Source: Methylobacterium sp. J-067
Lineage (GTDB): Bacteria; Pseudomonadota; Alphaproteobacteria; Rhizobiales; Beijerinckiaceae
NCBI RefSeq assembly: GCF_022829465.1
Contig: NZ_JAKSXZ010000050.1
Location: 40,609 to 104,608 of the forward strand
Direction of reading: 5' to 3'
Length of the DNA: 64,000 bases
The notes below the pieces were generated by a model. The model did no database searches. It was given only the letters and a program-made list of their open reading frames with translations, and had not been told where the DNA came from. Positions 8,421-23,100 of the stretch are shown piece after piece. How positions within the stretch are numbered: the stretch's first letter is position 1; every line of letters begins with the position of its first letter. Made by a program: the position numbers and the translations under genes.

Positions 8421-8788
8421 CGGGTTCCGGGGCGAGGGCTGGGTGAGGGGCAGCGTGCGAGGAAGATCCCCGGGATGATCCGGCCCTTCTGGCCGAACAG
8501 CTCCACGGCCTCTCCGCAGCTTGCCGGCACATCCTTCTCGTAGGCGGCGAGGGAGGCGCGGGCCTGCAGCATCGGCGCGTCGCGATCGATCTCCGCGGGA
8601 TCGACTCCCATCGACCGGATCGCGCCCTTGAAGCGTTCCGCGTCCGATTTGAGCGCGCTGCAATGGAGGTTCACGAAGCCGACAAAGCCGGCAAGCTTGG
8701 CCGCATTGCGCTTTTCCGCAGGGATGTCGCCGGCCTCCTGGCCCCGCGGCGTCCGACCCGTACGCGACGTTCGCCTGGATTGATGCAC
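8387..8788 (-). pseudogene. Degraded two-cysteine hypothetical protein
   Basis: An open minus-strand frame whose central part (about residues 28-100) looks like a real domain: RNAAKLAGFVGFVNLHC, then a GVDPAEIDRD turn and a DVPASCGEAVELFG stretch with the second Cys. The pattern parallels the gene at 47-526. The N-terminus (about 25 residues) and the last ~25 residues look like random translation, no ribosome site precedes the nominal GTG, and the expected signal anchor is missing. It is therefore listed as a remnant, although a short functional protein cannot be excluded. Confidence 0.4.
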
Positions 8789-8801
8789 GTTTCACATTAA
8801 T
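8779..8801. promoter_or_regulatory. Operator candidate of the sugar-acid regulon, copy 1 (aldolase promoter)
   Basis: ATTGATGC, seven bases, then ACATTAAT. This is an inverted repeat 130 bp upstream of the GarL-type aldolase ATG. Two better copies with the same arm length and spacing lie at 15753-15775 and 18477-18499, ahead of the other two transcription units of the same pathway. This copy matches 6 of 8 bases in its right arm. The regulator is not obvious within the window. Confidence 0.55.
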
Positions 8802-8930
8802 CAATCCAATTTTGGCGTTTGACCGAATACATCTCTCCATTCACGCTCGTCCGAGCAATGGCCGCATCGGGGGAGCCCCTGAAAGAATGGCCAGGCGCGA
8901 ATTGCGCGACATCGTGGAGAGAAACAGACG

Positions 8931-9701
8931 ATGATCCAGTGGAGGAACACGCTCAAGGGAGCTCTGCAGGCCGGCGAGCAGCAGATCGGTCTCTGGTGCA
9001 GCTTGGCCAACACCATTTCCACTGAGGTCGTCGCGGGGGCGGGGTTCGATTGGCTGCTCCTCGATATGGAGCATTCGCCGAACGACCTGCGGGATGTCTA
9101 CAGCCAGCTTCAGGTCATGACCGGCGAGGGCACCCAGCCCATGGTGCGGGTGCCGAGCGCCGACCCGATCGTCATCAAGCGGATCCTCGACGCGGGCGCC
9201 CAGTCGCTCCTGATCCCGAACGTCGACGATGCCGAGCAGGCCCGCATCGCCGTGGCGGCCACCCGCTACGCACCGCGCGGCGTGCGCGGCTTCTCTCAAT
9301 CGCCCCGGGCCGCCCGGTTCGGGCGCATCCCGGATTACCACGCGACGTGTGAGGCCGAACTCCTCGTGGCCGTTCAGGTCGAGTCGCGCCACGCGCTCGA
9401 CAATCTCGAGCAGATCGCAGCGGTGGACGGCGTCGACTGCGTCTTCATCGGGCCCGGCGACCTCTCGATGAGCCTCGGCTATCTCGGCCAGCAGAATCAC
9501 CCCGAGATCGTCCGCATCATCGAAGAGACGATCCGGCGCATCGTGCGCACGGGCAAGGTCGCCGGCATCCTGACCGCCAACGAGGACCTGGCCCGGCGCT
9601 ACATCGCGGCGGGCACGCGCCTCACGGCGGTCGGCTCGGATGCAGGTCTCCTGGCCCGCGCCTCGGAGGCCCTGGCGGCCCGGTTCAAGGATGACGCCTG
9701 A
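8931..9701 (+). CDS. garL: HpcH/HpaI-family aldolase, 2-dehydro-3-deoxyglucarate aldolase type
   Basis: A 256-residue class II aldolase of the GarL/HpaI family. It would split 5-keto-4-deoxy-D-glucarate (or its 2-keto isomer) into pyruvate and tartronate semialdehyde. Visible features are the LLLDMEHSPND loop with catalytic-type His48, the metal-ligand Glu in VQVES and Asp in IGPGDLS, and a closing AVGSD segment, all collinear with E. coli GarL. The reductase that consumes tartronate semialdehyde is 27 bases downstream, supporting the sugar-acid role over HpaI-type aromatic breakdown. Translation starts at the ATG at 8931. Confidence 0.88.
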   Translation: MIQWRNTLKGALQAGEQQIGLWCSLANTISTEVVAGAGFDWLLLDMEHSPNDLRDVYSQLQVMTGEGTQPMVRVPSADPIVIKRILDAGAQSLLIPNVDDAEQARIAVAATRYAPRGVRGFSQSPRAARFGRIPDYHATCEAELLVAVQVESRHALDNLEQIAAVDGVDCVFIGPGDLSMSLGYLGQQNHPEIVRIIEETIRRIVRTGKVAGILTANEDLARRYIAAGTRLTAVGSDAGLLARASEALAARFKDDA

Positions 9702-9728
9702 CCCGGCGCAACGAAGAGGACGACGCGC

Positions 9729-10628
9729 ATGAAGATCGGATTTATCGGGCTCGGCATCATGGGCCGCCCCATGGCGGCGAACCTGATGAAGGCTGGCCAC
9801 GACCTCTTCCTGAAATCCGGATCGAAACCGGTGGCGGAGGATCTGGTCTCGGCCGGCGGCCGCGTCTGCGAGAGCGCCCGCGCCGTGGCCGAGCAGGCCG
9901 ACGTGATCATCACGATGGTGCCGGACACGCCGCAGGTCGAGGCGGTGCTGTTCGGTCCCGCCGGTGTCGCAGAGGGCCTGAGCCCCGGCAAGCTGGTGAT
10001 CGACATGAGTTCGATCTCGCCGATCGCCACCAAGGACCTCGCCCGCCGCATCAACGAACGCGGCTGCGACTACCTCGATGCACCGGTCTCGGGCGGCGAG
10101 GTCGGGGCGAGGGCCGCCTCGCTCACCATCATGGTCGGCGGGCCCGAGGCCGCCTTCGCGCGGGCGATGCCGCTGTTCGAGGCGATGGGCAAGACCATCA
10201 CCCTCGTCGGCGGGAACGGCGACGGCCAGACCACCAAGGTGGCCAACCAGATCATCGTCGCGCTGAACATCGAGGCCGTGGCCGAGGCGCTGGTCTTCGC
10301 CGCGAAGGCCGGAGCCGACCCGGCCCGCGTGCGCCAGGCCCTCATGGGGGGGTTCGCCGCGTCTCGCGTCCTCGAGGTGCACGGCGAACGCATGGTCAAG
10401 GGCACCTTCGACCCGGGCTTCCGGATCGAACTGCACCAGAAGGACCTGAACCTCGCGCTTCAGGGCGCCCGGACGCTCGGCGTGCCGCTGCCCAACACGG
10501 CGACCGCGCAGGAGCTCTTCAACACCTGCGCGGCGCAGGGCGGCCAGGGGTGGGACCATTCCGCGATGGTCCGGGCCCTGGAGCTCATGGCGAACCGCAC
10601 CCTGGCCGGCCCGCCCGCGGTCGCCTGA
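9729..10628 (+). CDS. garR: 2-hydroxy-3-oxopropionate (tartronate semialdehyde) reductase
   Basis: A 299-residue beta-hydroxyacid dehydrogenase that reduces tartronate semialdehyde to D-glycerate with NAD(P)H. The N-terminal GLGIMGRPMAANL is the dinucleotide loop, DAPVSGGEVGA is the substrate-binding loop at about residues 118-128, and the catalytic Lys lies in KVANQIIVALN at about 173. Length and motif order match GarR/GlxR. It directly follows the aldolase that makes its substrate, as in the galactarate pathway. It ends 14 bases from the convergent ABC transporter gene. Confidence 0.92.
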   Translation: MKIGFIGLGIMGRPMAANLMKAGHDLFLKSGSKPVAEDLVSAGGRVCESARAVAEQADVIITMVPDTPQVEAVLFGPAGVAEGLSPGKLVIDMSSISPIATKDLARRINERGCDYLDAPVSGGEVGARAASLTIMVGGPEAAFARAMPLFEAMGKTITLVGGNGDGQTTKVANQIIVALNIEAVAEALVFAAKAGADPARVRQALMGGFAASRVLEVHGERMVKGTFDPGFRIELHQKDLNLALQGARTLGVPLPNTATAQELFNTCAAQGGQGWDHSAMVRALELMANRTLAGPPAVA

Positions 10629-10642
10629 CCCCGCCGGGGAAC

Positions 10643-11737
10643 TCAGTGTTCCAGCAGGATGCAATGGTCCGGGTCGGCCGACAGCGAGGCCGCCTGACCC
10701 TCCGACCAGGGTTGCATGCCGGTCTGGCGGACGACCAATTCACGGCCGCCCCACTCCACATGAACCTGGGTGAGGTCGCCCAGGAAGATGGCCCGCTTCA
10801 CCGTCACCGGCCACACGTTCGTCTCATGCGCCGGGGCCTGCGGCGTCAGCTTGAGATGGACCGTCCGGACGGAGAAGCTCGGCCGGTCGCCGACGGCGCG
10901 GCCGTGGGCCGATCCGTGGATGAGGTGGCCGCCCGGGGTCTCCAGGGCGATCGCGTCGCCCCGGGTCAGGTCCGGCCTGATCCGGCCCTGGATGAGGTTG
11001 GCCGAACCGACGAAGTCGGCGACGAACTCGGTGCGCGGATAATTGTAGATCTCGGAGGGCGGGCCGCTCTGCTCGATCTGCCCGGCGCGCATCACGACGA
11101 TCTTGTCGGACATCGCGAGCGCCTCCTCCAGGTCGTGCGTGACGTAGAGCGAGGTGACGCCGAGGCGGTGCTGAAGCTCGCGCAGCTCGATGCGCATGTC
11201 GCCCCGCAGCTTCGCGTCGAGGTTCGACAGCGGCTCGTCGAACAGCAGGACCGACGGCGAGAAGGCGCAGGCCCGCGCCAGCGCCACCCGCTGCTGCTGC
11301 CCGCCCGAGAGCTGCGAGGCGTGGCGGTCGGCGTACGGCCCCATCTGGACGAGGTCGAGGGCGGCGCCCACCCGCTCGCGGATCTCGGCCGCCCCCTTCT
11401 GGCGCACGCGCAGGCCGTACGCGACGTTCTCGAAGACCGTCATGTGCGGCCAGATCGCGTAGGACTGGAACACCATCGACAGCCCCCGCGCCTCGGCGGG
11501 AACGTCGATGCCGCGCGCCCCGTCGTAGACGGTGCGGCCGCCGATGCGGATCGCGCCCGCGCTCGGCTTCTCCAGCCCCGCGACCGCGCGCAGCGTCGTC
11601 GTCTTGCCGCAGCCCGAGGGCCCGAGCAGCGTGAGCTGCTGGCCGGCGGCGACCGTGAAGCTGACCGGACCGACCGCAGCCACCGCGCCGTAGCGGATGA
11701 CAAGGTCCTCGACCTCGATGTGCTGTCCCGGGCTCAT
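10643..11737 (-). CDS. ABC transporter ATP-binding protein, Fbp/Pot family
   Basis: A 364-residue ATPase. The Walker A is GPSGCGKTT, the signature is LSGGQQQRVALARA, and the Walker B is VLLFDEPLSNLD followed by the switch histidine in VTHDLEEAL. A C-terminal TOBE-type extension (about 240-364) fits the CysA/PotA/FbpC class. It powers import through the permease whose stop codon lies one base upstream. Annotation pipelines usually call this type an iron(III) or spermidine system. Here the neighbours argue for a sugar-acid or related anionic substrate, which is an inference. Confidence 0.9.
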   Translation of the reverse strand: MSPGQHIEVEDLVIRYGAVAAVGPVSFTVAAGQQLTLLGPSGCGKTTTLRAVAGLEKPSAGAIRIGGRTVYDGARGIDVPAEARGLSMVFQSYAIWPHMTVFENVAYGLRVRQKGAAEIRERVGAALDLVQMGPYADRHASQLSGGQQQRVALARACAFSPSVLLFDEPLSNLDAKLRGDMRIELRELQHRLGVTSLYVTHDLEEALAMSDKIVVMRAGQIEQSGPPSEIYNYPRTEFVADFVGSANLIQGRIRPDLTRGDAIALETPGGHLIHGSAHGRAVGDRPSFSVRTVHLKLTPQAPAHETNVWPVTVKRAIFLGDLTQVHVEWGGRELVVRQTGMQPWSEGQAASLSADPDHCILLEH

Positions 11738-11738
11738 G

Positions 11739-13460
11739 CTAGGCTCCGATCCGCCCGTAGCGGCGGGTGATGGCGAGGAAGACGAGCATCGCGACCCCGA
11801 CGAAGGCGGTCTGGATCAGCGCCATCGCCGCGGTGAGTTCACTCGAGGAGGAGAAGAACGCCTCCACGATGGCGGGGGTCAGCACCTTCGAATCGGGCCC
11901 CATCAGCAGGATCGAGGCGCCGAGCTCCCGCACGCTCGCCACGAAGATGAGCAGCCAGGCGGCGAACAGGCCGGGCTTCAGGAGCGGCATGGTGATGGTG
12001 CGCAGCCGCTGGCCCCAGCTCGCACCGCACACCTCGCCACATTCCTCCAGGCTCTTGTCGAGCTGGACCAGCACGCCGCTGATCGCCCGCACGCCGAGCG
12101 GCAGGAACACGGTGAGATAGGCGATCAGCAGGATCCAGATCGTGCCGTAGACCGGTATCGGGAACACCAGCCACGCCCACATCATGCCGAAGGCGAAGAC
12201 CAGCCGCGGCACCGCCTGCGGGAACATCACGATGTATTCGAGCATGCCCCGCCCCGCGAGGCGGGAGCGCTGGATCAGCCATGCGAGCAGCCCTGTCACG
12301 ACGACACCGATCGTCGCGGTCAGCACGCCGAGGAACAGGCTGTTCCAGATCGCCTGCCGCACGGCGTTGAGCGAGAGCGCGGTGCGGTAATGCTCCAGGG
12401 TGAAGTTGTCGGCCGAGGGCAGCGCCACCGCGAGCCGCTGGACCGAGGCGTAGCCCAGCGTCGCGATCGGCAGGACGACCGAGAGGACGACATAGGCGAT
12501 GCACAGCGCGAACAGCGCCCAGCGCAGGCCCCCGACATCCATCGGGCGCGGCCGGAAGGCCTTGCCGGTCACGGTCACGTAGCTGCGGCCGCGGGTGACA
12601 CGCCGGTAGGCATAGAGCATCGCGAACATCACGACGAACAGCGACACGCCCATGGCGGCGGCGAGCGGCAGCTTCGGGGGGTATTGGGAGACGAGCTGAT
12701 AGATCGCCGTGGTGATCACGTAGAAGCGGTTCGGCGTCCCGAGCACCAGCGCGGCCGCGAACGACCCGAGCATCTCGGCGAAGACGAAGAGCGCGGCCCC
12801 GAGCACGCCGGGGGCGACGAGCGGCAGGGTTACCTTCAGCATGGTGCGCAGCCGGCTCCCGCCGAGGATCTGGCTCGCCTCCTCCAGCGACGGATCCATC
12901 GACTTCATCACGGCGCTGATCATCACGAAGGCGACGGAGCCCTCGAACAGCGCCATCACCCAGGCGATCCCGACGGGCCCCGTGATGTCGACGATCGCCC
13001 CGCCGCCGCCCAGCGCACGCCAGATCTGGTTGATGAACCCGCTCTCGGGCGCGCCGAGGAAGTTCCAGGCCAGCGCGCCGAGCAGCGGCGTGACGTAATA
13101 GGGCACCGCCATCAGCTGCTCCAGCGTGCCGCGGAAGGGCACGTTGGTGCGCGTCAGGATCCAGGCGAACAGGAAGCCGAACACCATCGCCATCGCCGTC
13201 GCGGCGAAGGCGACGACGAGGGTGTTGAGCATCACCTCCCAGTAGTTCGGGAGCAGCGCGTAATTGTCGAGGCCGTAGGCGGTCGGCGGCCGCACGTTCG
13301 GGTCGCCGACGTCCAGGGAGGCCTGGATCAGGTAGTAGATCGGGTAGAGCACGCACAGCGCGGCGGTGATCGCCACGGCATAGCCGACGACCTTCTGCGT
13401 CGGGAAATGCCGGCGGTGCGCGACCATCGGCAGGGGCGGGGCGTCCGTAAGCGCGGTCAT
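11739..13460 (-). CDS. ABC transporter permease, two fused inner-membrane domains (FbpB type)
   Basis: A 573-residue inner-membrane protein with about twelve transmembrane helices in two homologous halves. Each half carries the EAA loop that docks to the ATPase (EEASQILGGSRLRTMLKV in the first, EECGEVCGASWGQRLRTI in the second). Fusion of two permease domains is normal for the FbpB/ThiP class. It sits between the solute-binding protein (10 bases upstream) and the ATPase, forming one importer operon. Confidence 0.92.
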   Translation of the reverse strand: MTALTDAPPLPMVAHRRHFPTQKVVGYAVAITAALCVLYPIYYLIQASLDVGDPNVRPPTAYGLDNYALLPNYWEVMLNTLVVAFAATAMAMVFGFLFAWILTRTNVPFRGTLEQLMAVPYYVTPLLGALAWNFLGAPESGFINQIWRALGGGGAIVDITGPVGIAWVMALFEGSVAFVMISAVMKSMDPSLEEASQILGGSRLRTMLKVTLPLVAPGVLGAALFVFAEMLGSFAAALVLGTPNRFYVITTAIYQLVSQYPPKLPLAAAMGVSLFVVMFAMLYAYRRVTRGRSYVTVTGKAFRPRPMDVGGLRWALFALCIAYVVLSVVLPIATLGYASVQRLAVALPSADNFTLEHYRTALSLNAVRQAIWNSLFLGVLTATIGVVVTGLLAWLIQRSRLAGRGMLEYIVMFPQAVPRLVFAFGMMWAWLVFPIPVYGTIWILLIAYLTVFLPLGVRAISGVLVQLDKSLEECGEVCGASWGQRLRTITMPLLKPGLFAAWLLIFVASVRELGASILLMGPDSKVLTPAIVEAFFSSSSELTAAMALIQTAFVGVAMLVFLAITRRYGRIGA

Positions 13461-13470
13461 GGCCGGCGGC

Positions 13471-14562
13471 TCACAGGCCCATCATCCCGTTCCATTCCTT
13501 GACGAAGGCGGAATGGGACTGGGCAAGCTTCTCGATGTCGGGAAACAGGAGCTTGTACTCGCGCAGGTTGGCCCCGCCGGGCATCGGCGGCGCGTCCCTG
13601 CGCAGGGAGGGATAATAGTAGAACGGGTTGTTCTGGTAGACGGCCTGCCCGCGCTGCGACATGAGCCAGTCCAGGAACAGGCGGGCGGCCTGCGGGTGCG
13701 GCGCCTTGGTGGCGAGGCCGGTGGCGAGCGTCGCGGTCGGCGCCCCATCCTCCGGCACCACAAACCGCACCGGAGCGCCCTTGTCCTTGGCGAGTTGGTA
13801 GCCGGCCCATTCGGCCATGCCGCAAATCTTGTCGTCGCCCTTTGCGAGTCGGTCGAAGATCTGGGCGCGGGAATCGAAGCCGCGCGGGCGCTGCTTGGCG
13901 AAGTCCTTCCAGAAGCCGTCGCCGTAGAGCCGCCGCAGCTCGTACCATTGCACGAACTGCGATCCGCTCGTCACCTGCTTGGTGCTGATCGTGCCGCGCC
14001 ACTTCGGGTCGAGCAGATCCTTCCAGCTCTTGGGCGCCTCGGCCTCGGGCACGCGGTCGGTGTTGTAGGCGATGCCGATGGGCAGCACGCCGGAATGGAA
14101 GAAGTAGCCGGGCGGATTGTCGAGCGCGGTCTCAGGATAGGCCTTCGCTTGCGGCGAGACGTAGAGCTCGAAGCCGTCCCTCTTGCGGAAGTCCATGGCG
14201 GTCGGGACTTCCGAAAACTGGATGACGTCGGCGGCGAAGCGGCCGGCTGAGCGTTCGGCCAGGAGCTTGCTGTAGAGCGCGCCGGTCTGGGCGCGCAGGT
14301 AGTTGCCCTTGATCTTCGGGAAATCGGTCGAGAAGGCCTTCATCAGCGCCGCCGCCGCAGGATCGCTGTCGTGCGTGTAGAAGAGGATCTCGCCCTCCTT
14401 CTCGGCGGCCGCGACGTCGGCGCCTGTCTCGAAGCCGTGGACCGTGGTGGTCGCGTGGCCCTGCGCCCAGGCCTGCCGCAGGAGCGCGGGCGCGAGCGGG
14501 AGGGCGAGGCCGCTGGCGAGCAGGCTGCGCCGGGACGGCCCGCCCTTCGTCAATTCCGTCAT
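13471..14562 (-). CDS. Periplasmic solute-binding protein of the Fbp-type ABC importer
   Basis: A 363-residue extracellular binding protein, family 1 (FbpA/FutA-like). The N-terminus SRRSLLASGLALPLAPALL carries a twin-arginine pair before the hydrophobic core and ends with a signal cleavage region near QAWAQG, so Tat export is possible. The EGEILFYTHDSDPAAAALM segment is the ligand-binding entry of the family. The iron-coordinating double tyrosine of true FbpA is not evident, which weakens an iron role. The second of two adjacent ATGs (14562) is better spaced from GGGAGG than the first at 14565. Confidence 0.88.
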   Translation of the reverse strand: MTELTKGGPSRRSLLASGLALPLAPALLRQAWAQGHATTTVHGFETGADVAAAEKEGEILFYTHDSDPAAAALMKAFSTDFPKIKGNYLRAQTGALYSKLLAERSAGRFAADVIQFSEVPTAMDFRKRDGFELYVSPQAKAYPETALDNPPGYFFHSGVLPIGIAYNTDRVPEAEAPKSWKDLLDPKWRGTISTKQVTSGSQFVQWYELRRLYGDGFWKDFAKQRPRGFDSRAQIFDRLAKGDDKICGMAEWAGYQLAKDKGAPVRFVVPEDGAPTATLATGLATKAPHPQAARLFLDWLMSQRGQAVYQNNPFYYYPSLRRDAPPMPGGANLREYKLLFPDIEKLAQSHSAFVKEWNGMMGL

Positions 14563-14668
14563 CATGTCCTCCCGTATCGTTGTTGTTTGGACGCCGCCTC
14601 CGGTCTTCGCCGGGGTTCGGCCCTTTGGGGTCCGCGCGGGGCGCGGCCTCGCCGACGGCCGTCTGGCC

Positions 14669-15646
14669 CTATGCGGCCGTGCGCGGCCCGGCGGTTTCCG
14701 GCACCGGCGTCAGCGGTTCCTTCCCGGCGAACCACGCGACGAGGTTGTCGACGACGAGGCGGGCCATCGCGTCCCGGGTGTGATGCGAGGCGGACCCGAT
14801 ATGGGGGAGCAGCACCGCATTGGCGCAGGCGAGCAAGGCCTCGGGCACCCGCGGCTCGTGCGCGAACACGTCGAGCCCGGCGCCCGCGATGGTGCCGTCG
14901 GCGAGCGCCCCGGCCAGGGCTGCCTCGTCGATGATCGAGCCCCGGCCGACATTCACCACGATGCCGTTCGGACCCAGGGCTTCCAGCACCGCACGCCCGA
15001 CCAGGCCGTCGGTCGCGGCCCCGCCCGGCGCCGCGATGACCAGCGTGTCGACCGCAGCGGCGAGGTCGAGCACGTCCGCGTAATAGGGGTAATCGACCTC
15101 GGGCTGGTTGCGGCGGCCGCAATAGCTGACGGGCAGGCCGAACGCCTCGACCCGGCGGGCGATCGCCTTGCCGATCCGGCCGAGCCCGAGGATGCCGACG
15201 GAACGCCCGCGCAGGCTCGCCGTGGGGGGAAAGGCGCCCGCGAGCCAGGCGCCGCTCCGCAGGAAGCGCTCCGCCTCGCCCGTCCGGCGCACGGTCGAGA
15301 GCAGGAGGGCGAGGGCGATGTCGGCGACGTCGTCGGTGAGGACATCGGGCGTGTGGGTGACGACGATGCCGCGCCGGGCCGCCTCGGCGGCGTCGATGTG
15401 GTCGTAGCCGACGCCGAAGCTCGCGACGATCTCGAGATGGGGCAGACGGTCGAAGAAGCGCGCGTCGATCGGGTCATGGCCGCCGCCGGCCGCGATGGCC
15501 CGGATCGATGCCGCCTCGCTTCCGGCCAGCCCGGAATAATCCGTATCGTTCGGGATCCGGACGGGTGTGAAATGCTGGGAAATCCCCGCATCGATCAGTG
15601 GCTTGGAGATGCCGTAATGCAGCACATGAGGCGCCGGCGAATGCAT
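14669..15646 (-). CDS. D-isomer 2-hydroxyacid dehydrogenase (glyoxylate/hydroxypyruvate reductase type)
   Basis: A 325-residue NAD(P)-dependent reductase. The cofactor loop is GILGLGRIGKAIARRVEAFG. The catalytic triad is suggested by Arg near VIAAPGG, Glu after NVGRGSIIDEAAL, and His in LLPHIGSASHHTR. Likely substrates are hydroxypyruvate or glyoxylate, which fits the glycerate produced by the GarR step. It is the first gene of a probable operon with the ABC importer (103 bases downstream) and has the shared 23-bp operator candidate 107 bp upstream. Confidence 0.87.
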   Translation of the reverse strand: MHSPAPHVLHYGISKPLIDAGISQHFTPVRIPNDTDYSGLAGSEAASIRAIAAGGGHDPIDARFFDRLPHLEIVASFGVGYDHIDAAEAARRGIVVTHTPDVLTDDVADIALALLLSTVRRTGEAERFLRSGAWLAGAFPPTASLRGRSVGILGLGRIGKAIARRVEAFGLPVSYCGRRNQPEVDYPYYADVLDLAAAVDTLVIAAPGGAATDGLVGRAVLEALGPNGIVVNVGRGSIIDEAALAGALADGTIAGAGLDVFAHEPRVPEALLACANAVLLPHIGSASHHTRDAMARLVVDNLVAWFAGKEPLTPVPETAGPRTAA

Positions 15647-15752
15647 GGCGATAACTCCCCTCCCGGCCTATCCACTTGCAGTGAGCGGATATTTGCTTTG
15701 ATGACCAAGCCAACATTGTTGCTCGATCATGTCTAGTTCAAATCTTGCATCA

Positions 15753-15775
15753 ATTGTTGCGCTTCGAGCATCAAT
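15753..15775. promoter_or_regulatory. Operator candidate of the sugar-acid regulon, copy 2 (dehydrogenase/ABC promoter)
   Basis: ATTGTTGC, seven bases, GCATCAAT; arms match 7 of 8 as an inverted repeat. It lies 107 bp upstream of the hydroxyacid dehydrogenase ATG. An additional GCATCAAT at 15747-15754 overlaps its left edge, giving three half-sites in 29 bp. Both arms are identical to copy 3. Confidence 0.65.
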
Positions 15776-15834
15776 CGCCGACGACAGGACCTGGATTGCA
15801 ACCGGGCACTGTCGTCACCGTCCTCTCGCAGCGA

Positions 15835-16965
15835 TCAGTGCAGGCTGCCGAACCCCGCCACGTCCCGCGTCCAGGCCAGCGCCTGTTCGCTGAGGCTGAT
15901 GCCGAGACCGGGGCGGGTCGGCACGAGCATCCGTCCATCTTGCAATTCCAGACGCTCGTTGAACAGCGGCTCCAGCCACTCGAAATGCTCCACCCACGGC
16001 TCCCGCTGCATCGCGGCGGCGAGGTGGATGTGCAGCTCCATCGAGAAGTGCGGGGCGATGGTCATGCCGGCGAACTCGGCGAGCGTCGCGACCCTCAGAT
16101 AGGGGGTGATGCCGCCCACGCGGGGGGCATCCGGCATCAGGAAGTCGGCGCTGTTCTGGCGGATGAAGTCCCAGTGCTCGGACACGCTCGTCAGCATTTC
16201 GCCGGTGGCGATCGGCGTGTCGAGGGCGGCGGCGAGCGCCGCGTGGCCGGCGGCGTCGTAGCAATCGAGGGGTTCCTCGATCCAGATCAGGTTGAACCGC
16301 TCGAAGATGCGGCCCATCCGCATCGCGGTCGGCCGGTCCCATTGCTGGTTGGCGTCGACCATCAGCGGGAAGGCGTCGCCGAGATGTTCGCGAACGCGGG
16401 ACACGCGCTCGATGTCGAGGGCCCAGTCCGGCTGACCGACCTTCAGCTTGATGCCGCCGATCCCCTTCTCGCGGGAGCGGTCGGTGTTCACCAGAAGCTC
16501 CTCCAGCGGGGTGTGCAGGAAGCCGCCGGAGGTGTTGTAGCAGCGCACCGAGTCGCGCTGCGCCCCGAGGAGCTTGGCCAGAGACAGGCCGGCGCGCTTC
16601 GCCTTCAGGTCCCAGAGCGCCACGTCGAAGGCGCCGATCGCCTGCACGGCGAGGCCGCTGCGCCCCACCGAGGCGCCCGCCCACGCGAGCTTGTCCCAGG
16701 CCTTGGCGATGTCGCTCGGGTCCTCGCCGAGGAGCGCCGGGGCGATCTCGCAGGCATGGGCGAACTGCCCCGGCCCGCCGGCCCGCTTCGAGTAGCTGAT
16801 CCCGAGGCCGCGATGCCCACCCTCGGTCTCGACCTCGCAGAACAGGATCGCGATCTCGGTCATCGGCTTCTGCCGGCCGGTCAGCACCTTGGCATCGCTG
16901 ATCGGGGTCTTGAGCGGCAGGTAGACCGAGCGCAGGCGGATGCCGGTGACTGTGTCCTGGGCCAT
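15835..16965 (-). CDS. L-talarate/galactarate dehydratase, enolase superfamily
   Basis: A 376-residue mandelate-racemase-type enzyme that would dehydrate galactarate (or talarate) to 5-keto-4-deoxy-D-glucarate. Visible motifs are the KLKVGQPD catalytic lysine strand, metal ligands in VDANQQW, IEEPLD and ATGEMLTS, and the catalytic His in APHFSMELHIH. The C-terminal EPWVEHFEWLEPLFNE and LELQDGRM stretches closely follow Salmonella TalrD/GalrD as I remember it. The ATG at 16965 has a GGAGG five bases before it; an open frame continues upstream but has no homology. It lies 32 bases after the MFS transporter. Confidence 0.88.
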   Translation of the reverse strand: MAQDTVTGIRLRSVYLPLKTPISDAKVLTGRQKPMTEIAILFCEVETEGGHRGLGISYSKRAGGPGQFAHACEIAPALLGEDPSDIAKAWDKLAWAGASVGRSGLAVQAIGAFDVALWDLKAKRAGLSLAKLLGAQRDSVRCYNTSGGFLHTPLEELLVNTDRSREKGIGGIKLKVGQPDWALDIERVSRVREHLGDAFPLMVDANQQWDRPTAMRMGRIFERFNLIWIEEPLDCYDAAGHAALAAALDTPIATGEMLTSVSEHWDFIRQNSADFLMPDAPRVGGITPYLRVATLAEFAGMTIAPHFSMELHIHLAAAMQREPWVEHFEWLEPLFNERLELQDGRMLVPTRPGLGISLSEQALAWTRDVAGFGSLH

Positions 16966-16997
16966 GATGTCCTCCAAAAGGGTTGGGAATGCCGCGC

Positions 16998-18362
16998 TCA
17001 GGCCCGGGCGGTGCCGACATCGCGCGGGAGGACCGGCTCCGCATCCACCGCGCGCCCGTCGCCGCGGATCTCGAGGCGGTTCAGCGGCCCGACGATGACG
17101 AGGTAGGAGAGGGCGCCGATCAGCGCGACCACGCCGATGTAGACGAGGGCGAGGTCGAAGGAGCCCATTTCCTTGACGATGATGCCGATGGCGAGCGGCG
17201 TGACGATGCTGGCGAGGTTGCCGCACAGATTGAAGATGCCGCCGCTGACGCCCATGATCTGCTTGGGCGAGACGTCGCCGACGATGCACCAGCCGAGGTT
17301 GCCGATGCCCTTGGCGAAGAAGGCGACGCTCATCACCACGATCACGAACACGTCGGATTGGACGTAGTTGGCAAGGATGATCGTCGAGGAGAACAGGAGC
17401 CCGACGATGATCGGGAGCTTGCGCGCCGTCGTGAGACTGAAGCCGCGCCGGAGCATCCAATCCGACCACAGGCCACCCGCCAGGCCGCCGAGGAAGCCGC
17501 AGATCGCCGGGATCGCCGCCACGAGGCCGACCTTGAGGATCGACATGCCCCGCGCTTCGAGCAGGTAGGTCGGGAACCACGTTAGGAAGAACCACGTGAT
17601 CGTGGTGAGGCAGAACTGGCCGATATAGATTCCGACCATCATGCGGTTGCTGATCAGCGCCTTCACTTCGGACCAACGGATCCGGTCGCGCTTGTCCCCC
17701 ATGTTCGGCAGACCGCCGCCGGCCTCGATGTAGTCGAGCTCGCCCTGGTTGACGCCCCGGTGGTGGCGCGGCTCGTGGACGTAGAGCAGCCACACGATGC
17801 CGAGGACGATGCCGACGCCGCCGGCCCAGTAGAAGATCGCCTGCCAGCTATGGGCGTGCAGGATCCACGTCATGATCGGCGTGAAGACGGCGAGCGCGAA
17901 ATATTGCGCGGACTGGAAGATCGAGGTGGCGAAGGCCCGTTCCTTGGTCGGGAACCACATCACCGTCAGGCGGCTGTTGGCCGGGAAGGCGGGCGCTTCG
18001 GCGATGCCCATCAGGAAGCGCAGGGCGAACAGCGCGAGGAAGGTGAACGAGACGGCGTGGACGAGGCCCTGCATCATCGTGAGGGCCGACCACAGGATCA
18101 GGCCGATGCCGTAGACGAGGCGGGTGCCGTGTTTGTCGAGCACCCAGCCGCCGGGGATCTGCATCGCCGTGTAGGCCCAGCCGAAGGCCGAGAAGGCGAG
18201 ACCCATCGTGATCGCATCGAAACCGAATTCGGCGCGCATCGCCGGGGCCGCGACGGAGAGGGTGGCGCGGTCGACGTAATTGAATGTCGTTGCCAGGAAG
18301 ATCAGCGCCAGGATCACGTACCTGACATTGGTCTTCTTCAGGGCGTGCCCTGGTTGAGCCAT
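16998..18362 (-). CDS. MFS sugar-acid transporter (GudP/GarP, anion:cation symporter family)
   Basis: A 454-residue inner-membrane permease with twelve predicted helices. The ATFNYVDRATLSVAAPAM motif in helix 1, the GWAYTAMQIPGGWVLDKHG loop and the central cytoplasmic loop are diagnostic of the ACS family that carries galactarate, glucarate and D-galactonate. It opens the operon with the dehydratase. The ATG at 18362 has GGAGGA upstream; an extra 15 residues in frame upstream lack support. The operator candidate lies 115 bp upstream. Confidence 0.9.
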   Translation of the reverse strand: MAQPGHALKKTNVRYVILALIFLATTFNYVDRATLSVAAPAMRAEFGFDAITMGLAFSAFGWAYTAMQIPGGWVLDKHGTRLVYGIGLILWSALTMMQGLVHAVSFTFLALFALRFLMGIAEAPAFPANSRLTVMWFPTKERAFATSIFQSAQYFALAVFTPIMTWILHAHSWQAIFYWAGGVGIVLGIVWLLYVHEPRHHRGVNQGELDYIEAGGGLPNMGDKRDRIRWSEVKALISNRMMVGIYIGQFCLTTITWFFLTWFPTYLLEARGMSILKVGLVAAIPAICGFLGGLAGGLWSDWMLRRGFSLTTARKLPIIVGLLFSSTIILANYVQSDVFVIVVMSVAFFAKGIGNLGWCIVGDVSPKQIMGVSGGIFNLCGNLASIVTPLAIGIIVKEMGSFDLALVYIGVVALIGALSYLVIVGPLNRLEIRGDGRAVDAEPVLPRDVGTARA

Positions 18363-18476
18363 GGCGGTCCTCCGATGTCGAGGCCCGTCTCGTCGCTCAC
18401 GGAGCAACGGCAGCCTTCGTTCAACGGAATGGGTGGCAAAGGACTGTTTTCGTGTCCAACGTCATTTTTGGATCGA

Positions 18477-18499
18477 TTGTTGCGCAATCGGCATCAATG
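18477..18499. promoter_or_regulatory. Operator candidate of the sugar-acid regulon, copy 3 (MFS/dehydratase promoter)
   Basis: ATTGTTGC, seven bases, GCATCAAT, 115 bp upstream of the MFS transporter ATG. The arms are identical to copy 2 and only the central seven bases differ, which is what conserved protein contacts at two half-sites would produce. The rest of the stretch up to the fumC stop codon holds no supportable gene. Confidence 0.65.
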
Positions 18500-18661: not shown

Positions 18662-20077
18662 TCAGTATTCCTGGGAAGGGGCGGATGAGGTCATCGCGGC
18701 CGGGTCTACGATGCGGTCATACTCGTCCGCGGTCATGTCGCCCAGGGCGACCGCCGCAGCGCGTGGAGTCAGCCCCTCGGCCATGGCCTTGCGGGTGATG
18801 GCCGCGACGCGGTCGTAGCCGAGCGTGGGATTGAGCGCCGTCGCGAGCAGCAGCGCGTTCGCGACGTTCTCGGCGAGCCGGGCCCGGTCGACGTCGAGGT
18901 CCCGCACCAACTTCTCGGCGAAGACGTGCGCGGCGTCCGCCAGAAGCCGAATCGACTGCAGCAGGTTGTGGATCAGGACAGGCTTGGCAACGTTCAACTC
19001 GAACGTCCCGGACGCACCGGCCGCCGTGATCGTCGCATGGTTGCCGACGACCTGAAAGGCGGCCTGGATCAGGGCCTCGGCGATGGTCGGGTTGCGCTTG
19101 CCGGGCATGATCGAGGACGACAGTCCGTCGTCGGGGATCACGAGTTCGCCGAGGCCGCAGCGCGGCCCCGAGCCGAGCAGGCGGATGTCGTTGGCGATCT
19201 TGATGAGGGACACCGCCAGCACGTTGAGCGAGCCCGAAACCTCGACGAGAGCGTCGTGGGCGCCCATCCCCTCGAACTTGCTCGGATTGGGCGTGACCGG
19301 CAGCCCGGTGAGGTCCGCGACCTCCTCGCAGAAGGCCGCGTCGAACCCGGCCGGGGCGTTGAGGCCCGACCCCACGGCGGTACCGCCCTGGGCGAGTCGA
19401 TGGAGCCGCGGTGCCGTGGCCTCGATCCGCTCGATCCCATGGCCGACCTGACGCGCGAAGGCGTCGAAGGTCTGTCCCATCGTCATGGGCACGGCGTCCA
19501 TGAGATGCGTCCGGCCGATCTTCACGACGTCCTTGAACCCGTCTGCCTTGGCGGCGAGGGTGTCACGCAGCCGCCCCAGCGCCGGCAGCAGCCGGTCGCG
19601 CAGTTCCAGCCCGGCACTCAGGTGCATCACGGTCGGGAAGCTGTCGTTCGAGGATTGCGACCGGTTGACGTGGTCGTTGGGGTGGACCGGCCGGCGCGTG
19701 CCCAAAGGCTGCCCCAGGATCTCGTTGGCCCGGTTGGCGATGACCTCGTTCGCGTTCATGTTGGTCTGGGTGCCCGAGCCGGTCTGCCAGACCGGCAGCG
19801 GGAAATGCCCGTCGAAGCGCCCCTCCCAGACCTCCCGGGCCGCCGCCTCGATGGCCCTGGCGAGGGGCTCGTCGAGGGTCCCGAGACGGCGGTTGGCGCG
19901 GGCCGCCGCCAGCTTCTGGAGGCCGAAGGCGCGCACGAGGCAGGTCGGGAAGCGTTCCTCGCCGATCTGGAAGATACCGAGGGCGCGCTGCGTCTGGGCC
20001 CCCCAGTAGCGGTCGGCCGGGATCTCGACGGGACCGAAGGCGTCGTGTTCGGTTCGAACGTTCGCAGGCTCGCTCAT
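18662..20077 (-). CDS. fumC: Class II fumarate hydratase
   Basis: A 471-residue cytoplasmic fumarase converting fumarate to L-malate. The superfamily signature SSSIMPGKRNP is present, as are the TGSGTQTNMNANEVIANRA and HPNDHVNRSQSSND substrate-site regions. The ATG at 20077 is preceded by GAGGA and gives the usual FumC length. A start at 20149 would overlap dctA and add residues without homology. It is last in a run of three minus-strand genes behind the lyase and dctA, which suggests that fumarate from the lyase or from uptake is fed to the TCA cycle. Confidence 0.94.
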   Translation of the reverse strand: MSEPANVRTEHDAFGPVEIPADRYWGAQTQRALGIFQIGEERFPTCLVRAFGLQKLAAARANRRLGTLDEPLARAIEAAAREVWEGRFDGHFPLPVWQTGSGTQTNMNANEVIANRANEILGQPLGTRRPVHPNDHVNRSQSSNDSFPTVMHLSAGLELRDRLLPALGRLRDTLAAKADGFKDVVKIGRTHLMDAVPMTMGQTFDAFARQVGHGIERIEATAPRLHRLAQGGTAVGSGLNAPAGFDAAFCEEVADLTGLPVTPNPSKFEGMGAHDALVEVSGSLNVLAVSLIKIANDIRLLGSGPRCGLGELVIPDDGLSSSIMPGKRNPTIAEALIQAAFQVVGNHATITAAGASGTFELNVAKPVLIHNLLQSIRLLADAAHVFAEKLVRDLDVDRARLAENVANALLLATALNPTLGYDRVAAITRKAMAEGLTPRAAAVALGDMTADEYDRIVDPAAMTSSAPSQEY

Positions 20078-20145
20078 CGGCGTTGTCCTCGTCTGGATCC
20101 GGGAATCCCTAACGCAAGCGCCCCGCATCGGGGTGATGGGGCGGG

Positions 20146-21486
20146 TCACGCCGCCGCTGCGCGCTCCGCACGCAGGCGGGCCATCGCGTCATGGGCCATG
20201 CTGGCGTCGAACTCCCCGGCGAGCTTGGCGGTGACAACGGTGGCCACGCTATTGCCGATGACGTTCGTCGTGGCGATGGCGATGGACATGAAGCGGTAGA
20301 CGCCGAACAGGATCGGCAGGCCCTCCAGCGGCAGCACGCCAGTCGCCGCCACCGTTGCGGCGAAGACCACGAAGCTGCCGCCCGACACCGTCGCCGCGCC
20401 CTTCGAGGTCAGCAGCATGATCGCCAGGATGCCGAGCTGCTGACCGAGGTCGAGGGGCACATGGTAGGCGTTGGCCAGGAAGATCACGCCCATCGACATG
20501 TAGATCGAGGTGCCGTCGAGGTTGAACGCGTAGCCGGTGGGCAGGACGAGTCCGACCGACTGGCGCGAGCAGCCGTAGGTCGGCAGCTTCTCGAGGAGGC
20601 GGGGCAGCACGCTTTCCGAGGAAGCGGTGCCGAGCACGATGTAGATCTCCTCGCGGATGAAGTTCAGGAACTGGAACAGGTTGATCTTGAAGATAGCCGA
20701 GATCGTCCCGAGGACCACGACGATGAAGACAGCGACCACCGCGTAGAAGCTCAGGATCAGGTAGAGCAGCGACAGGAGCACGTTGGTGCCGCTCGATCCG
20801 ACCGCGAAGGCCACGGCCCCGAACGTCCCGATGGGCGCCGTCAGCATGATGAGGTGGATGAACTCGAAGAAGGCGTCCGAAATCTTGTTCAGGCCCGCCT
20901 CGATGGGCGCGCGCTTCTCGACCGGGAGGTGGAGCAGCGCCGCCCCGAAGATCAGGGCGATGACCAGCACCTGCAGGAGTTCGCCTTTGGCGAAGGCGCC
21001 GATGAAGTTGTCGGGGAAGACGTTGAGGATGAAGTCGAGCGTCGAGTGCGGGGCGGCGGCGCCGGTGGGCGCCTTGCCCTGGGCGAGGTTGGCGCGGGTC
21101 GCGTCCGCCATGCCCTGGCCGACCCCGAGCAGGTTGCCCGCGAGGAGGCCGACGCCGAGCGCGAGGGTCGAGACGATCTCGAAGTAGAGCATCGCGATCA
21201 GGCCGACCTTGCCCACCCGCTTGAAGTCACCCGCCGACGTCACGCCGACGACGACGCACAGGAAGACCAGCGGGGCGACGGCGGTCTTGATCAGCCGCAG
21301 GAAGATGTCGCCGAGGATCTTGAGCGGGACGGCGACCTCGGGAACGAGGAAGCCGGTGGCGGCGCCGAGCAGCATCGCGACGACGATCTGGAAGCCGAGA
21401 TTGGTCCAGAGCGACTTTTTCTTCTTCATGGGGACCAAGGGCGTCGAACTGGGGACGACGTGCGGGTCGGTGCTGGCGGTGGGCAT
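20146..21486 (-). CDS. dctA: C4-dicarboxylate/proton symporter, DAACS family
   Basis: A 446-residue inner-membrane transporter for succinate, fumarate and malate. Eight helices and two re-entrant loops fit the family. Visible are the serine-rich loop (LGTASSESVLPRLLEKLP) and the GYAFNLDGTSIYMSMGVIFLANA segment with the substrate-binding Asp. The C-terminal NVIGNSVATVVTAK stretch carries the conserved Asn residues. The ATG at 21486 has GGAGGA before it. It is flanked by fumC and the lyase on the same strand. Confidence 0.93.
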   Translation of the reverse strand: MPTASTDPHVVPSSTPLVPMKKKKSLWTNLGFQIVVAMLLGAATGFLVPEVAVPLKILGDIFLRLIKTAVAPLVFLCVVVGVTSAGDFKRVGKVGLIAMLYFEIVSTLALGVGLLAGNLLGVGQGMADATRANLAQGKAPTGAAAPHSTLDFILNVFPDNFIGAFAKGELLQVLVIALIFGAALLHLPVEKRAPIEAGLNKISDAFFEFIHLIMLTAPIGTFGAVAFAVGSSGTNVLLSLLYLILSFYAVVAVFIVVVLGTISAIFKINLFQFLNFIREEIYIVLGTASSESVLPRLLEKLPTYGCSRQSVGLVLPTGYAFNLDGTSIYMSMGVIFLANAYHVPLDLGQQLGILAIMLLTSKGAATVSGGSFVVFAATVAATGVLPLEGLPILFGVYRFMSIAIATTNVIGNSVATVVTAKLAGEFDASMAHDAMARLRAERAAAA

Positions 21487-21604
21487 GGCTTCCTCCGGGC
21501 AGGTTCGGGCGGCTGCGCACTCTCGTTGTCGTCAGGCGGGCGGTCCCGACGGTTCGGTGCGGTCAGCGGGTGGGGCAGGATCTCGGTGGGGAAACGGACG
21601 TGGC

Positions 21605-22978
21605 TCAAGCGCCGCGGGGGACTGAGGCCAGGACGCGGTCGACCATTGCGGGGGCGGCCCCCAGGTAGTGGGCCGGGTCGGTCAGGCGTTCGATGGCGGC
21701 GCGGTCGAAATGCGCCGTGACCTCGGGCACCTGCGCCAGCGCCTCGGCCAGGGTGCCGCCCTTCTCGTTGACGACGCGGCAGGCGGCGTAGACGAGGTCG
21801 TGGGCCTGCTGGCGGCCGGTATGGGGGGCGAGCGCCATCATCACAGCCTCGGCGACGATCAGGCCACGGCTGATCCCGAGATTGTCGCGCATGCGCGCCT
21901 CGTCGACGATCAGGCCGCCGAGAGCGAACTTCGCTTGGTGCAGGGCGCCGGCGGTGAGCACGAAGCTCTCCGGCAGGGCCATCCACTCGGCGTGCCAGGG
22001 GCCGGTGGCCCGCTCGAAGTCCTGGACCATCGCGTCGAGCATCAGCCCGGCATGCTGGCGGACGCCCTTGGAGGCGGCGAGCATGAGCTCCGAGGAGATC
22101 GGGTTGCGCTTCTGCGGCATGGTCGAGGAGGCGCCTCGCCCGGTGACGAAGGGCTCATAGACCTCCGCGAACTCGGTCGAGGCCATGATCATGATGTCGA
22201 GCGCGATCTTGCCGAGCGAGCCGGTGATCAGCGCCAGCAGGTTGAGCGTCTCCGCGAACCCGTCGCGGGCCACGTGCCAGGTCGAGGCGGGCTGGCCGAG
22301 ACCCAACTCCCGGCAGAACGCCTCCTGCACCGCCAGACCGTCCCCGCCGAGCGAGGCCAGCGTGCCCGCCGCACCGGCGAACTCACCGACCAGCACGCGA
22401 GGCTTCAGCTGCTCCAGGCGCTCGGCGTGGCGGTCGAACATGGCGAGCCAGATCGCGGTCTTGTAGCCGAAGGTGACGGGCAGGGCCTGCTGGAGGTGGG
22501 TGCGCCCGGCCATCGGCGTGTCGCGGTAGCGCCGCGACAGGTCCGCCAGGATCGTGCGGAGTTCGGCGATGTCGGCCTCCACGATCTCCAGCCCGGCCCG
22601 GATCTGGAGGGCGTTGGCCGTGTCCATGATGTCCTGGGTGGTGGCGCCCCAGTGGACGTAGCGGCCGGCCTCGCCGCATTGGTGCACGAGCTGATGCACG
22701 AGCGGGAGGATCGGGTAGCCGACGTTGTCCGTCTCCCGGCGCAGCAGATCGAAGTCGAGGGCGTCGAAGTCACATTGCGCGGCGATGACCTCGGCGGCCT
22801 CGGCCGGGATGACGCCGCAGGCCGCCTCGGCTTTCGCCAGGGCGATCTCGGCCTCGATGTAGCGCTGGATCAGAGCGTGGTCGGAGAACACCGCCCGCAT
22901 GGCGGGCGTGCCGAAGGCGTCGCGGAACAAGAGGGAATCGAGGGCGGTGGTGGCGGTTGGGGGGAGCTGGCGGCCCAC
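21605..22978 (-). CDS. Fumarase/aspartase-superfamily lyase (adenylosuccinate lyase / PcaB-like), substrate unknown
   Basis: A 457-residue lyase. The superfamily signature appears as GASSTMPQKRNP, the HWGATTQDIMDTA loop carries the acid/base His region, and AGRTHLQQALPVTFG is the second conserved block. Members cleave C-N or C-O bonds and usually release fumarate; PcaB is the exception, making a lactone. No other pca genes are present, whereas dctA and fumC are, so a fumarate-releasing reaction is more likely. The GTG at 22978 with AGGAGG five bases before it is chosen. Upstream ATG codons in frame would run through the operator region. Control by the divergent GntR regulator is likely. Confidence 0.82.
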   Translation of the reverse strand: MGRQLPPTATTALDSLLFRDAFGTPAMRAVFSDHALIQRYIEAEIALAKAEAACGVIPAEAAEVIAAQCDFDALDFDLLRRETDNVGYPILPLVHQLVHQCGEAGRYVHWGATTQDIMDTANALQIRAGLEIVEADIAELRTILADLSRRYRDTPMAGRTHLQQALPVTFGYKTAIWLAMFDRHAERLEQLKPRVLVGEFAGAAGTLASLGGDGLAVQEAFCRELGLGQPASTWHVARDGFAETLNLLALITGSLGKIALDIMIMASTEFAEVYEPFVTGRGASSTMPQKRNPISSELMLAASKGVRQHAGLMLDAMVQDFERATGPWHAEWMALPESFVLTAGALHQAKFALGGLIVDEARMRDNLGISRGLIVAEAVMMALAPHTGRQQAHDLVYAACRVVNEKGGTLAEALAQVPEVTAHFDRAAIERLTDPAHYLGAAPAMVDRVLASVPRGA

Positions 22979-23011
22979 GGTTTCCTCCTGGCGAACGCGC
23001 CCGTATCTTTT

Positions 23012-23023
23012 ATGTTCGGACAT
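23012..23023. promoter_or_regulatory. GntR-type operator candidate, distal copy
   Basis: ATGTTCGGACAT, palindromic at 10 of 12 bases, 34 bp upstream of the lyase GTG. It is 27 bp (start to start) from a perfect copy at 23039-23050. Its position between the lyase and the divergent GntR/UTRA gene makes that protein the likely binder. Confidence 0.6.
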
Positions 23024-23038
23024 TAATAACGGTATGTC

Positions 23039-23050
23039 ATGTCCGGACAT
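23039..23050. promoter_or_regulatory. GntR-type operator candidate, perfect palindrome
   Basis: ATGTCCGGACAT reads identically on both strands and shares its outer and central bases with the copy at 23012. It lies about 50 bp before the GntR start, so it probably mediates autoregulation as well as control of the lyase operon. Confidence 0.65.
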
Positions 23051-23100
23051 TATGTCAATCGGCATGGCGTAAGCGGAGGACCGGCGGATGGAACGGTGCG

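What the first reader, a model, noticed from the sequence alone, without database searches (positions are those of the whole stretch)
8779..18499. A 23-bp inverted repeat marks all three promoters of one sugar-acid pathway
The same element, ATTG[AT]TGC-N7-[GA]CAT[CT]AAT, occurs at 8779-8801, 15753-15775 and 18477-18499. Each copy lies 107-130 bp upstream of the first gene of a unit (aldolase/reductase; hydroxyacid dehydrogenase plus ABC importer; MFS permease/dehydratase). Arms are conserved (identical in two copies) and the central seven bases vary, the signature of a dimeric regulator. No regulator gene sits in the block, so the controlling protein must be encoded elsewhere and may be unassigned.
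Basis: seen in the sequence. Interest (0 to 1): 0.75.

Follow-up and report, generated by a model that had tools for sequence, protein, structure and literature searches.

The report
Scattered galactarate regulon's shared LysR operator
Five places scattered over one Methylobacterium genome, three of them in this window, carry the same 45-base element in front of sugar-acid genes, and it is likely read by a LysR-type regulator encoded beside one of them, so that a dispersed pathway for plant-type sugar acids would be switched on as a unit.

Summary
It is the upstream half of a 45-bp element, ATYGWTGC-N10-WYRAT-YVATCCAR-N8-TTGGAC. At up to 3 mismatches this occurs five times in the genome; its reversed control matches nowhere in 111 genus genomes. 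Of 128 distinct sites in 65 of those genomes, 125 lie upstream of sugar-acid enzyme or transporter genes. The fifth own site touches the start codon of a LysR-type gene (LTTR-B, contig C39) divergent from kdgD and garD; seven relatives read carry a related LysR gene (LTTR-A) inside such clusters. LTTR presence tracks the element (63/7/2/39 genomes); the window's GntR gene does not. The geometry fits a LysR promoter: T-N11-A dyad near a predicted -64, downstream half over TTGGAC, a TA 18-19 bases further on in 72 of 128. Binding, inducer and sign of control are untested. The species has LTTR-B alone where most relatives have LTTR-A: a possible regulator hand-over.

The parts
8779..8823 (+).
   Evidence: 1 mismatch to the 45-bp pattern; gene starts 107 bp after it
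15731..15775 (-). 45-bp element 2 (dyad 15753-15775), before the hydroxyacid dehydrogenase gene; downstream half weak
   Evidence: 3 mismatches; also present at the one 80% ortholog, in G089
18454..18498 (-). 45-bp element 3 (dyad 18476-18498), before the MFS permease gene
   Evidence: 0 mismatches; present before this permease in 9 other genomes
8931..9701 (+). HpcH/HpaI-family aldolase, likely 5-keto-4-deoxyglucarate aldolase
   Evidence: Pfam PF03328; GarL 290.9 and HpaI 316.2 bits, both under their cut-offs, so the substrate is inferred
9729..10628 (+). tartronate semialdehyde reductase (GarR type)
   Evidence: TIGR01505 440.8 bits, cut-off 340.75
14669..15646 (-). D-2-hydroxyacid dehydrogenase
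   Evidence: Pfam PF02826 and PF00389
13471..14565 (-). ABC importer, solute-binding protein
   Evidence: Pfam PF13343
11739..13460 (-). ABC importer, permease
   Evidence: Pfam PF00528
10643..11737 (-). ABC importer, ATPase
   Evidence: Pfam PF00005 and PF08402
16998..18362 (-). MFS sugar-acid permease (ATG start; a TTG start at 18407 is possible)
   Evidence: TIGR00893 428.7 bits, cut-off 395
15835..16965 (-). L-talarate/galactarate dehydratase
   Evidence: NF047820 673.5 bits, cut-off 500; nearest solved chains 2og9 and 2pp0

Best explanation
The repeat is the upstream half of a 45-bp promoter element that occurs at five places in this genome (at up to 3 mismatches), and that element is likely the two-part binding site of a LysR-type regulator whose gene lies at one of the five (LTTR-B, G000:C39:259434-260309) and which is predicted to switch on galactarate/talarate catabolism when a sugar-acid inducer is present. 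Shown: the element, its orientation, its place before the genes, its conservation, and its co-occurrence with the LysR genes. Inferred from the geometry and from LysR promoters in general: one dimer of a tetramer sits on the dyad ATYGATGC-N7-GCATCRAT (a T-N11-A box centred near a predicted -64), the other on the downstream half TCCA-N10-TGGA, which overlaps the likely -35 hexamer TTGGAC; the inducer would change the downstream contact and let RNA polymerase in. Between kdgD and LTTR-B the dyad runs into the LTTR-B start codon, so binding there would also hold LTTR-B down (autorepression, inferred). The units so joined would turn galactarate and L-talarate (GarD on C39, the dehydratase at 15835-16965) into 5-keto-4-deoxyglucarate and pass it to two exits: KdgD and an aldehyde dehydrogenase to 2-oxoglutarate, and the aldolase plus reductase to pyruvate and glycerate.
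For: Specificity: five 45-bp sites in the own genome; reversed control 0 in each of 111 genomes. Targets: 125 of 128 distinct sites have a sugar-acid enzyme or transporter gene starting 55-127 bp (one 402) downstream. Positions left free in the search pattern are conserved too (16-18 GCA, 34-37 TTTG). Regulator: in seven relatives' loci (L056-L061, L064) a LysR gene sits inside the cluster (Pfam run on two of the seven). The best of 23 LysR matches in the own genome is LTTR-B, 50% identical (next 36%); the fifth site touches its start codon, with kdgD divergent. Co-occurrence LTTR-A/B vs element 63/7/2/39, Fisher p = 2.5e-20; GntR 9/6/56/40, p = 1. Geometry: a TA begins 18 or 19 nt after the hexamer in 72 of 128 sites, about 1.9 expected per offset. 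Passages of PMC5603801 and PMC12016517 put the LysR regulatory site (T-N11-A) near -65 and the activation site at about -35. BenM and CatM are among the closest solved relatives of LTTR-B; their Site 1 is ATAC-N7-GTAT (figure legend of PMC6628147). LTTR-B's DNA-binding domain is the closest to LTTR-A of the 20 own LysR domains that aligned, with the helix TQSPLSRQIQ against TQPPLSRQIQ. Of 80 related LysR loci in named genomes, 53 have a core sugar-acid gene in the fetched flank.
Against: No binding, expression or growth data. Co-occurrence is not corrected for kinship. Seven genomes with an LTTR match have no element (G002, G005, G016, G030, G071, G104, G106; 58-61% identical to the LTTR-A query); G072 and G073 have an element without such an LTTR, in G073 before an MFS gene. 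Element 2 is weak in its downstream half, and its unit has one 80% ortholog only. The lactonase element is found upstream of none of 29 other lactonase homologues fetched with 1.5 kb flanks. G012 has LTTR-B and the dehydratase gene but an element only at kdgD. LTTR-B might serve only its own kdgD operon: the kdgD element has a different right arm (GGGATAAT for GCATCRAT). 'Activator' and 'inducer' are taken from the family. 14 of the 65 site-bearing genomes shaped the pattern.
Confidence: 0.85

Rival explanations
1. The element is an operator, but in this species the window's promoters are read by a regulator other than LTTR-B, which would control only kdgD.
For: The kdgD element differs from the other four in the right arm; LTTR-B is only about 50% identical to LTTR-A, the regulator found in the clusters with the usual element; the own genome has at least 22 further LysR matches.
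Against: No other LysR gene of the genome has a 45-bp site (five sites in all); the next LysR match is 36% identical; G102 also has LTTR-B without LTTR-A and carries the element before the same permease gene; at positions 3, 21 and 31 all five own elements share the base of the kdgD type, and at 38-39 four of five do.
Confidence: 0.1
2. The GntR/UTRA regulator at 22957-23862 controls the block.
For: It is the nearest regulator gene in the window.
Against: It occurs in 15 of 111 genomes, 9 of them with the element, while 56 genomes have the element without it; it has no 45-bp element.
Confidence: 0.02
3. The element is a composite: a LysR protein binds the dyad and a second, unrelated factor (or only RNA polymerase) reads the downstream half.
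For: The downstream half is not a T-N11-A box, and part of it (TTGGAC) is a likely -35 hexamer.
Against: Activation sites of LysR promoters are known to differ from the regulatory site and to overlap -35 (passages); TCCA upstream of the hexamer is conserved as well, though it was part of the search pattern.
Confidence: 0.12

Closest known systems
BenM/CatM regulatory sites of Acinetobacter (LysR type; PMC6628147, passages only)
   Same: Dyad with N7 spacer and T-N11-A spacing upstream of a promoter; BenM and CatM are among the nearest solved relatives of LTTR-B.
   Different: Half-sites ATYGATGC instead of ATAC; LTTR-B scores far under the BenM and CatM cut-offs (140.3 vs 600, 140.7 vs 580 bits); the targets are sugar-acid genes.
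GguR regulons for galactarate/glucarate (GntR family; passages of PMC5507952; Bouvier et al. 2019 not held, seen only in a reference list)
   Same: Same pathway; one regulator predicted to join the galactarate/glucarate operon with further operons.
   Different: Another regulator family; the GntR gene tested here does not track the element.
AlsR (best NCBIfam hit of LTTR-B)
   Same: LysR fold and length.
   Different: 234.4 bits against a cut-off of 430: not a member.
LysR promoters with a T-N11-A site near -65 and an activation site at about -35 (PnpR/PnpM, PMC5603801; BhbR1, PMC12016517; passages)
   Same: Same layout by predicted position.
   Different: PMC5603801 says that no conserved motif had been identified for the activation site; here CGATCCA-N9-TTGGAC is shared by many promoters, part of it being the likely -35 hexamer.

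Membership tests
LysR-type regulator with its operator | Regulator has HTH_1 and LysR_substrate domains | tested here: met
   Pfam for LTTR-A of L064 and L061; Pfam was not run on LTTR-B, which aligns with LTTR-A over its length at 47-50% and with BenM chains over residues 3-292
LysR-type regulator with its operator | T-N11-A within a dyad | tested here: met
   T6 in 100% and A18 in 93% of weighted sites, 11 bases between; A18 was free in the pattern, T6 was not
LysR-type regulator with its operator | Dyad near -65 and second site near -35 of the transcript start | tested here: inconclusive
   fits by predicted -35 and -10; no mapped transcript start
LysR-type regulator with its operator | Regulator gene divergent from a target and autoregulated | tested here: inconclusive
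   divergent from kdgD with the element at its start codon; regulation itself cannot be tested here
LysR-type regulator with its operator | Binding and inducer response | not testable with these tools
   needs protein and cells
BenM/CatM | NCBIfam cut-off for the name | tested here: not met
   140.3 vs 600 and 140.7 vs 580 bits
AlsR | NCBIfam cut-off for the name | tested here: not met
   234.4 vs 430 bits
GguR/GntR-type galactarate regulon | A GntR-family regulator gene tracks the operator | tested here: not met
   window's GntR/UTRA gene: 9/6/56/40, p = 1; other GntR genes were not searched genus-wide

The most novel reading that the evidence does not exclude
Two LysR regulators that parted long ago (about 50% identical, in separate branches of the LysR tree) read the same 45-bp two-part operator in Methylobacterium. 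In the window's species LTTR-A has been lost and LTTR-B has taken over its regulon; the operators stayed in place and drifted towards the LTTR-B type. A whole scattered regulon would then have been handed from one regulator to another without moving its binding sites, and both end states and the intermediate (both regulators) survive in one genus.
Probability: 0.45. Interest if true: 0.62.

Novelty: new member of a known kind. Interest (0 to 1): 0.5.

Why it matters
It turns an anonymous repeat into a testable regulon with one candidate regulator, five promoters and two exit branches for galactarate/talarate in a plant-associated genus; five searches of the held library listed no paper on a LysR-type regulator of this pathway as far as titles and abstract starts show. 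The element is sharp enough to point to target genes in 65 of 111 genomes. It has a conserved downstream half, where LysR activation sites are said to lack a common motif (PMC5603801). Species with LTTR-A alone, LTTR-B alone and both make a natural series for watching regulator replacement at fixed operators.

Tried and rejected
The GntR/UTRA gene near the block as the regulator: rejected by co-occurrence. The 23-bp dyad at 1 mismatch as a genus-wide marker: too loose; none of the seven loci L065-L071 fetched for such hits had a reference gene or, by eye, the downstream half, hence the 45-bp pattern. Dyads with 1-3 mismatches elsewhere in the own genome: apart from the one on C39 none is a 45-bp site. 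Generality of the lactonase element: tested, not supported. A conserved element at hydroxyacid dehydrogenases in general: 106 of 111 genomes have a match, but only G089's is above 62% identity (80%), and that one has the element. Papers: the LysR plus galactarate/glucarate searches showed 15 of 20, 12 of 30, 6 of 6, 10 of 11 and 0 of 0 papers; I saw listings, and passages of six papers, no whole paper; the library lacks most subscription journals, so absence from print is not claimed.
Full report
Observation. The pattern ATTGWTGC-N7-RCATYAAT matches the window exactly at 8779-8801, 15753-15775 and 18476-18498; with up to 3 mismatches only these three places match (six matches counting both strands) against 0.70 expected. 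The window lies at G000:C90:40609-104608 of a genome of 5,357,301 bases; one more exact copy exists, C36:5594-5616, 116 bp before an SMP-30/gluconolactonase-type gene, C36:5733-6752.

Genes. Behind element 1: an HpcH-family aldolase and a tartronate semialdehyde reductase (TIGR01505 above cut-off). Behind element 2: a D-2-hydroxyacid dehydrogenase and an ABC importer. Behind element 3: an MFS sugar-acid permease and an L-talarate/galactarate dehydratase (NF047820 above cut-off; nearest solved chains 2og9 and 2pp0). The aldolase scores under the cut-offs of GarL and HpaI, so its substrate is inferred; so is the substrate of the ABC importer and of the hydroxyacid dehydrogenase.

The element is larger. 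In 13 loci from 13 relatives (L052-L064) the dyad recurs before the same kinds of genes and is followed, on the gene side, by a second conserved stretch. Written as ATYGWTGC-N10-WYRAT-YVATCCAR-N8-TTGGAC and searched at up to 3 mismatches in 111 genus genomes, it gives five sites in the own genome (the three of the window, the lactonase one and C39:259391-259435), matches in 65 genomes, and no match of the reversed control in any of the 111. By my count its rows list 131 sites; fetched (and search loci) and made distinct they are 128, three being identical copies that were not scored apart (L331, L338, L339). One truncated duplicate (L307 at position 9, a 129th row) was dropped before the count. 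In 125 of 128 a reference gene starts 55-127 bp downstream (one at 402): second permease type 36, HpcH aldolase 26, enolase-superfamily dehydratase 24, KdgD 18, window-type permease 10, talarate/galactarate dehydratase 5, GarD 3, hydroxyacid dehydrogenase 2, lactonase 1; none for L278, L279 and L299. Nine of the 36 permease matches are only 61-67% identical. The own genome and the 13 relatives shaped the pattern; the other 51 site-bearing genomes did not.

Independent signs of function. Positions left free in the pattern are conserved (16-18 GCA, 0.8-2.1 bits; 34-37 TTTG, 1.0-1.8 bits); the N7 spacer carries at most 0.3 bit and the flanks at most about 0.4, apart from a weak signal of up to 0.7 some 20 bases downstream. 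There a TA begins 18 or 19 nt after TTGGAC in 38 and 34 of 128 sites, with about 1.9 expected per offset; TTGGAC is therefore likely the -35 hexamer and the dyad centre lies near -64. In the promoter before the window-type permease of nine aligned genomes, 24 of 45 element columns are invariant against 11 of 100 upstream; 43 of 80 downstream columns are invariant too, so conservation on the gene side is not special to the element there.

The regulator. In L056-L061 and L064 a LysR gene (LTTR-A) lies among the target genes. The own genome has no LTTR-A at 1e-85; its best LysR match is LTTR-B, C39:259434-260309, 50% identical, the next being 36%. LTTR-B is divergent from kdgD, which is followed by an MFS gene, an aldehyde-dehydrogenase-like gene (no name above cut-off) and garD; KdgD and GarD are above their cut-offs. 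The fifth element lies between the two, points at kdgD and overlaps the LTTR-B start codon by two bases. LTTR-B homologues of 72-85% identity occur in 19 other genus genomes, and the kdgD element in 17 further distinct copies. LTTR-A or LTTR-B against the element over 111 genomes: 63 both, 7 LTTR only, 2 element only, 39 neither (p = 2.5e-20, not corrected for kinship); the window's GntR gene: 9, 6, 56, 40 (p = 1). The seven LTTR-only genomes are all in the 58-61% group.

Wider spread. In 347 genomes of the order, 16 (in 5 of 134 genera; three of the 16 are of the own genus) have the element at up to 3 mismatches. Eight loci outside the genus have it between a LysR gene and kdgD, one between a LysR gene and an enolase-superfamily dehydratase gene; of six loci with no reference gene nearby I looked at four, of which three have it before a gene that looks like a TRAP-type binding protein and the fourth near one, and two more loci have it between a LysR gene and a TctC-like gene (sequence reading only); L411 shows nothing relevant and L415 only a distant LysR match. 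Of 80 LysR relatives in named genomes (the best 80 of a capped list), 53 have a core sugar-acid gene in the fetched flank, by identity limits that I set, from 19 of the first 20 to 8 of the last 20.

Regulator hand-over. In a tree of 65 LysR proteins LTTR-A groups with Bradyrhizobium and a few other proteins (99/97) and LTTR-B with another set that includes Pseudomonas and Burkholderia proteins (94/81, under the star limit), so they do not look like recent duplicates within the genus. Ten genomes carry the element before the window-type permease: LTTR-B alone in G000 and G102, LTTR-A alone in five (G080, G083, G085, G087, G092), both in three (G040, G086, G090). Scored between a kdgD (B) type and an A type, the two B-only genomes are the only positive ones at this promoter (+10.9 and +17.8 bits; the other eight -34.6 to -8.9). 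The aldolase element is -7.9 in the own genome against -75.1 to -63.4 in 25 others, but 23 of those 25 helped to train the A type; the own lactonase and hydroxyacid dehydrogenase elements are also slightly negative (-7.3, -7.6). All five own elements share the B-type base at positions 3, 21 and 31, and four of five at 38-39. The B type rests on one promoter family, and G000 and G102 may simply be kin, so this is suggestive only.

Limits. Nothing here shows binding, inducer or sign of regulation. Of 30 lactonase loci fetched with 1.5-kb flanks, only the own one and G108's have the element at up to 5 mismatches, and G108's lies downstream of the lactonase gene; in G108 the lactonase gene follows a permease gene that does have an element. 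Of 23 talarate/galactarate dehydratase matches in 21 genomes, 15 have an element directly before them or before the permease in front; G012, which has LTTR-B, is among those that do not. Literature: passages of PMC6628147, PMC5603801, PMC12016517, PMC6353982, PMC9162365 and PMC5507952 were read; Bouvier et al. 2019 was not available.

Noticed in passing
G000:C3:137025-137047 and G000:C58:100288-100310; similar 1-mismatch matches in many genus genomes: A GC-rich look-alike of the dyad, about ATTGTTGCC[CG]GG[CG]CCGCA[AG]TAAT, recurs across the genus; its context was not studied.
   Followed up: no
L416, L418, L422, L412, L414 (genomes of the order), element at 1501-1545: Further sites precede genes that look like TRAP-type or TctC-type solute-binding proteins, in L412 and L414 next to a LysR gene: possible further transport targets.
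   Followed up: partly
window 18662-23862: Fumarase-like, dicarboxylate symporter, lyase-like and divergent GntR/UTRA genes form a second block without the element; the GntR gene matches in 15 of 111 genomes, three of these with an internal stop.
   Followed up: partly
G002, G005, G016, G030, G071, G104, G106: Genomes with an LTTR at 58-61% identity to the LTTR-A query but no element at 3 mismatches; others of that group (such as G011, G063, G105) have a divergent form before a permease. The operator may have drifted with a third LysR type.
   Followed up: no
L053:5372-7218: An FCD-type GntR gene and a DHDPS-family gene lie near the MFS-dehydratase unit of G083.
   Followed up: no
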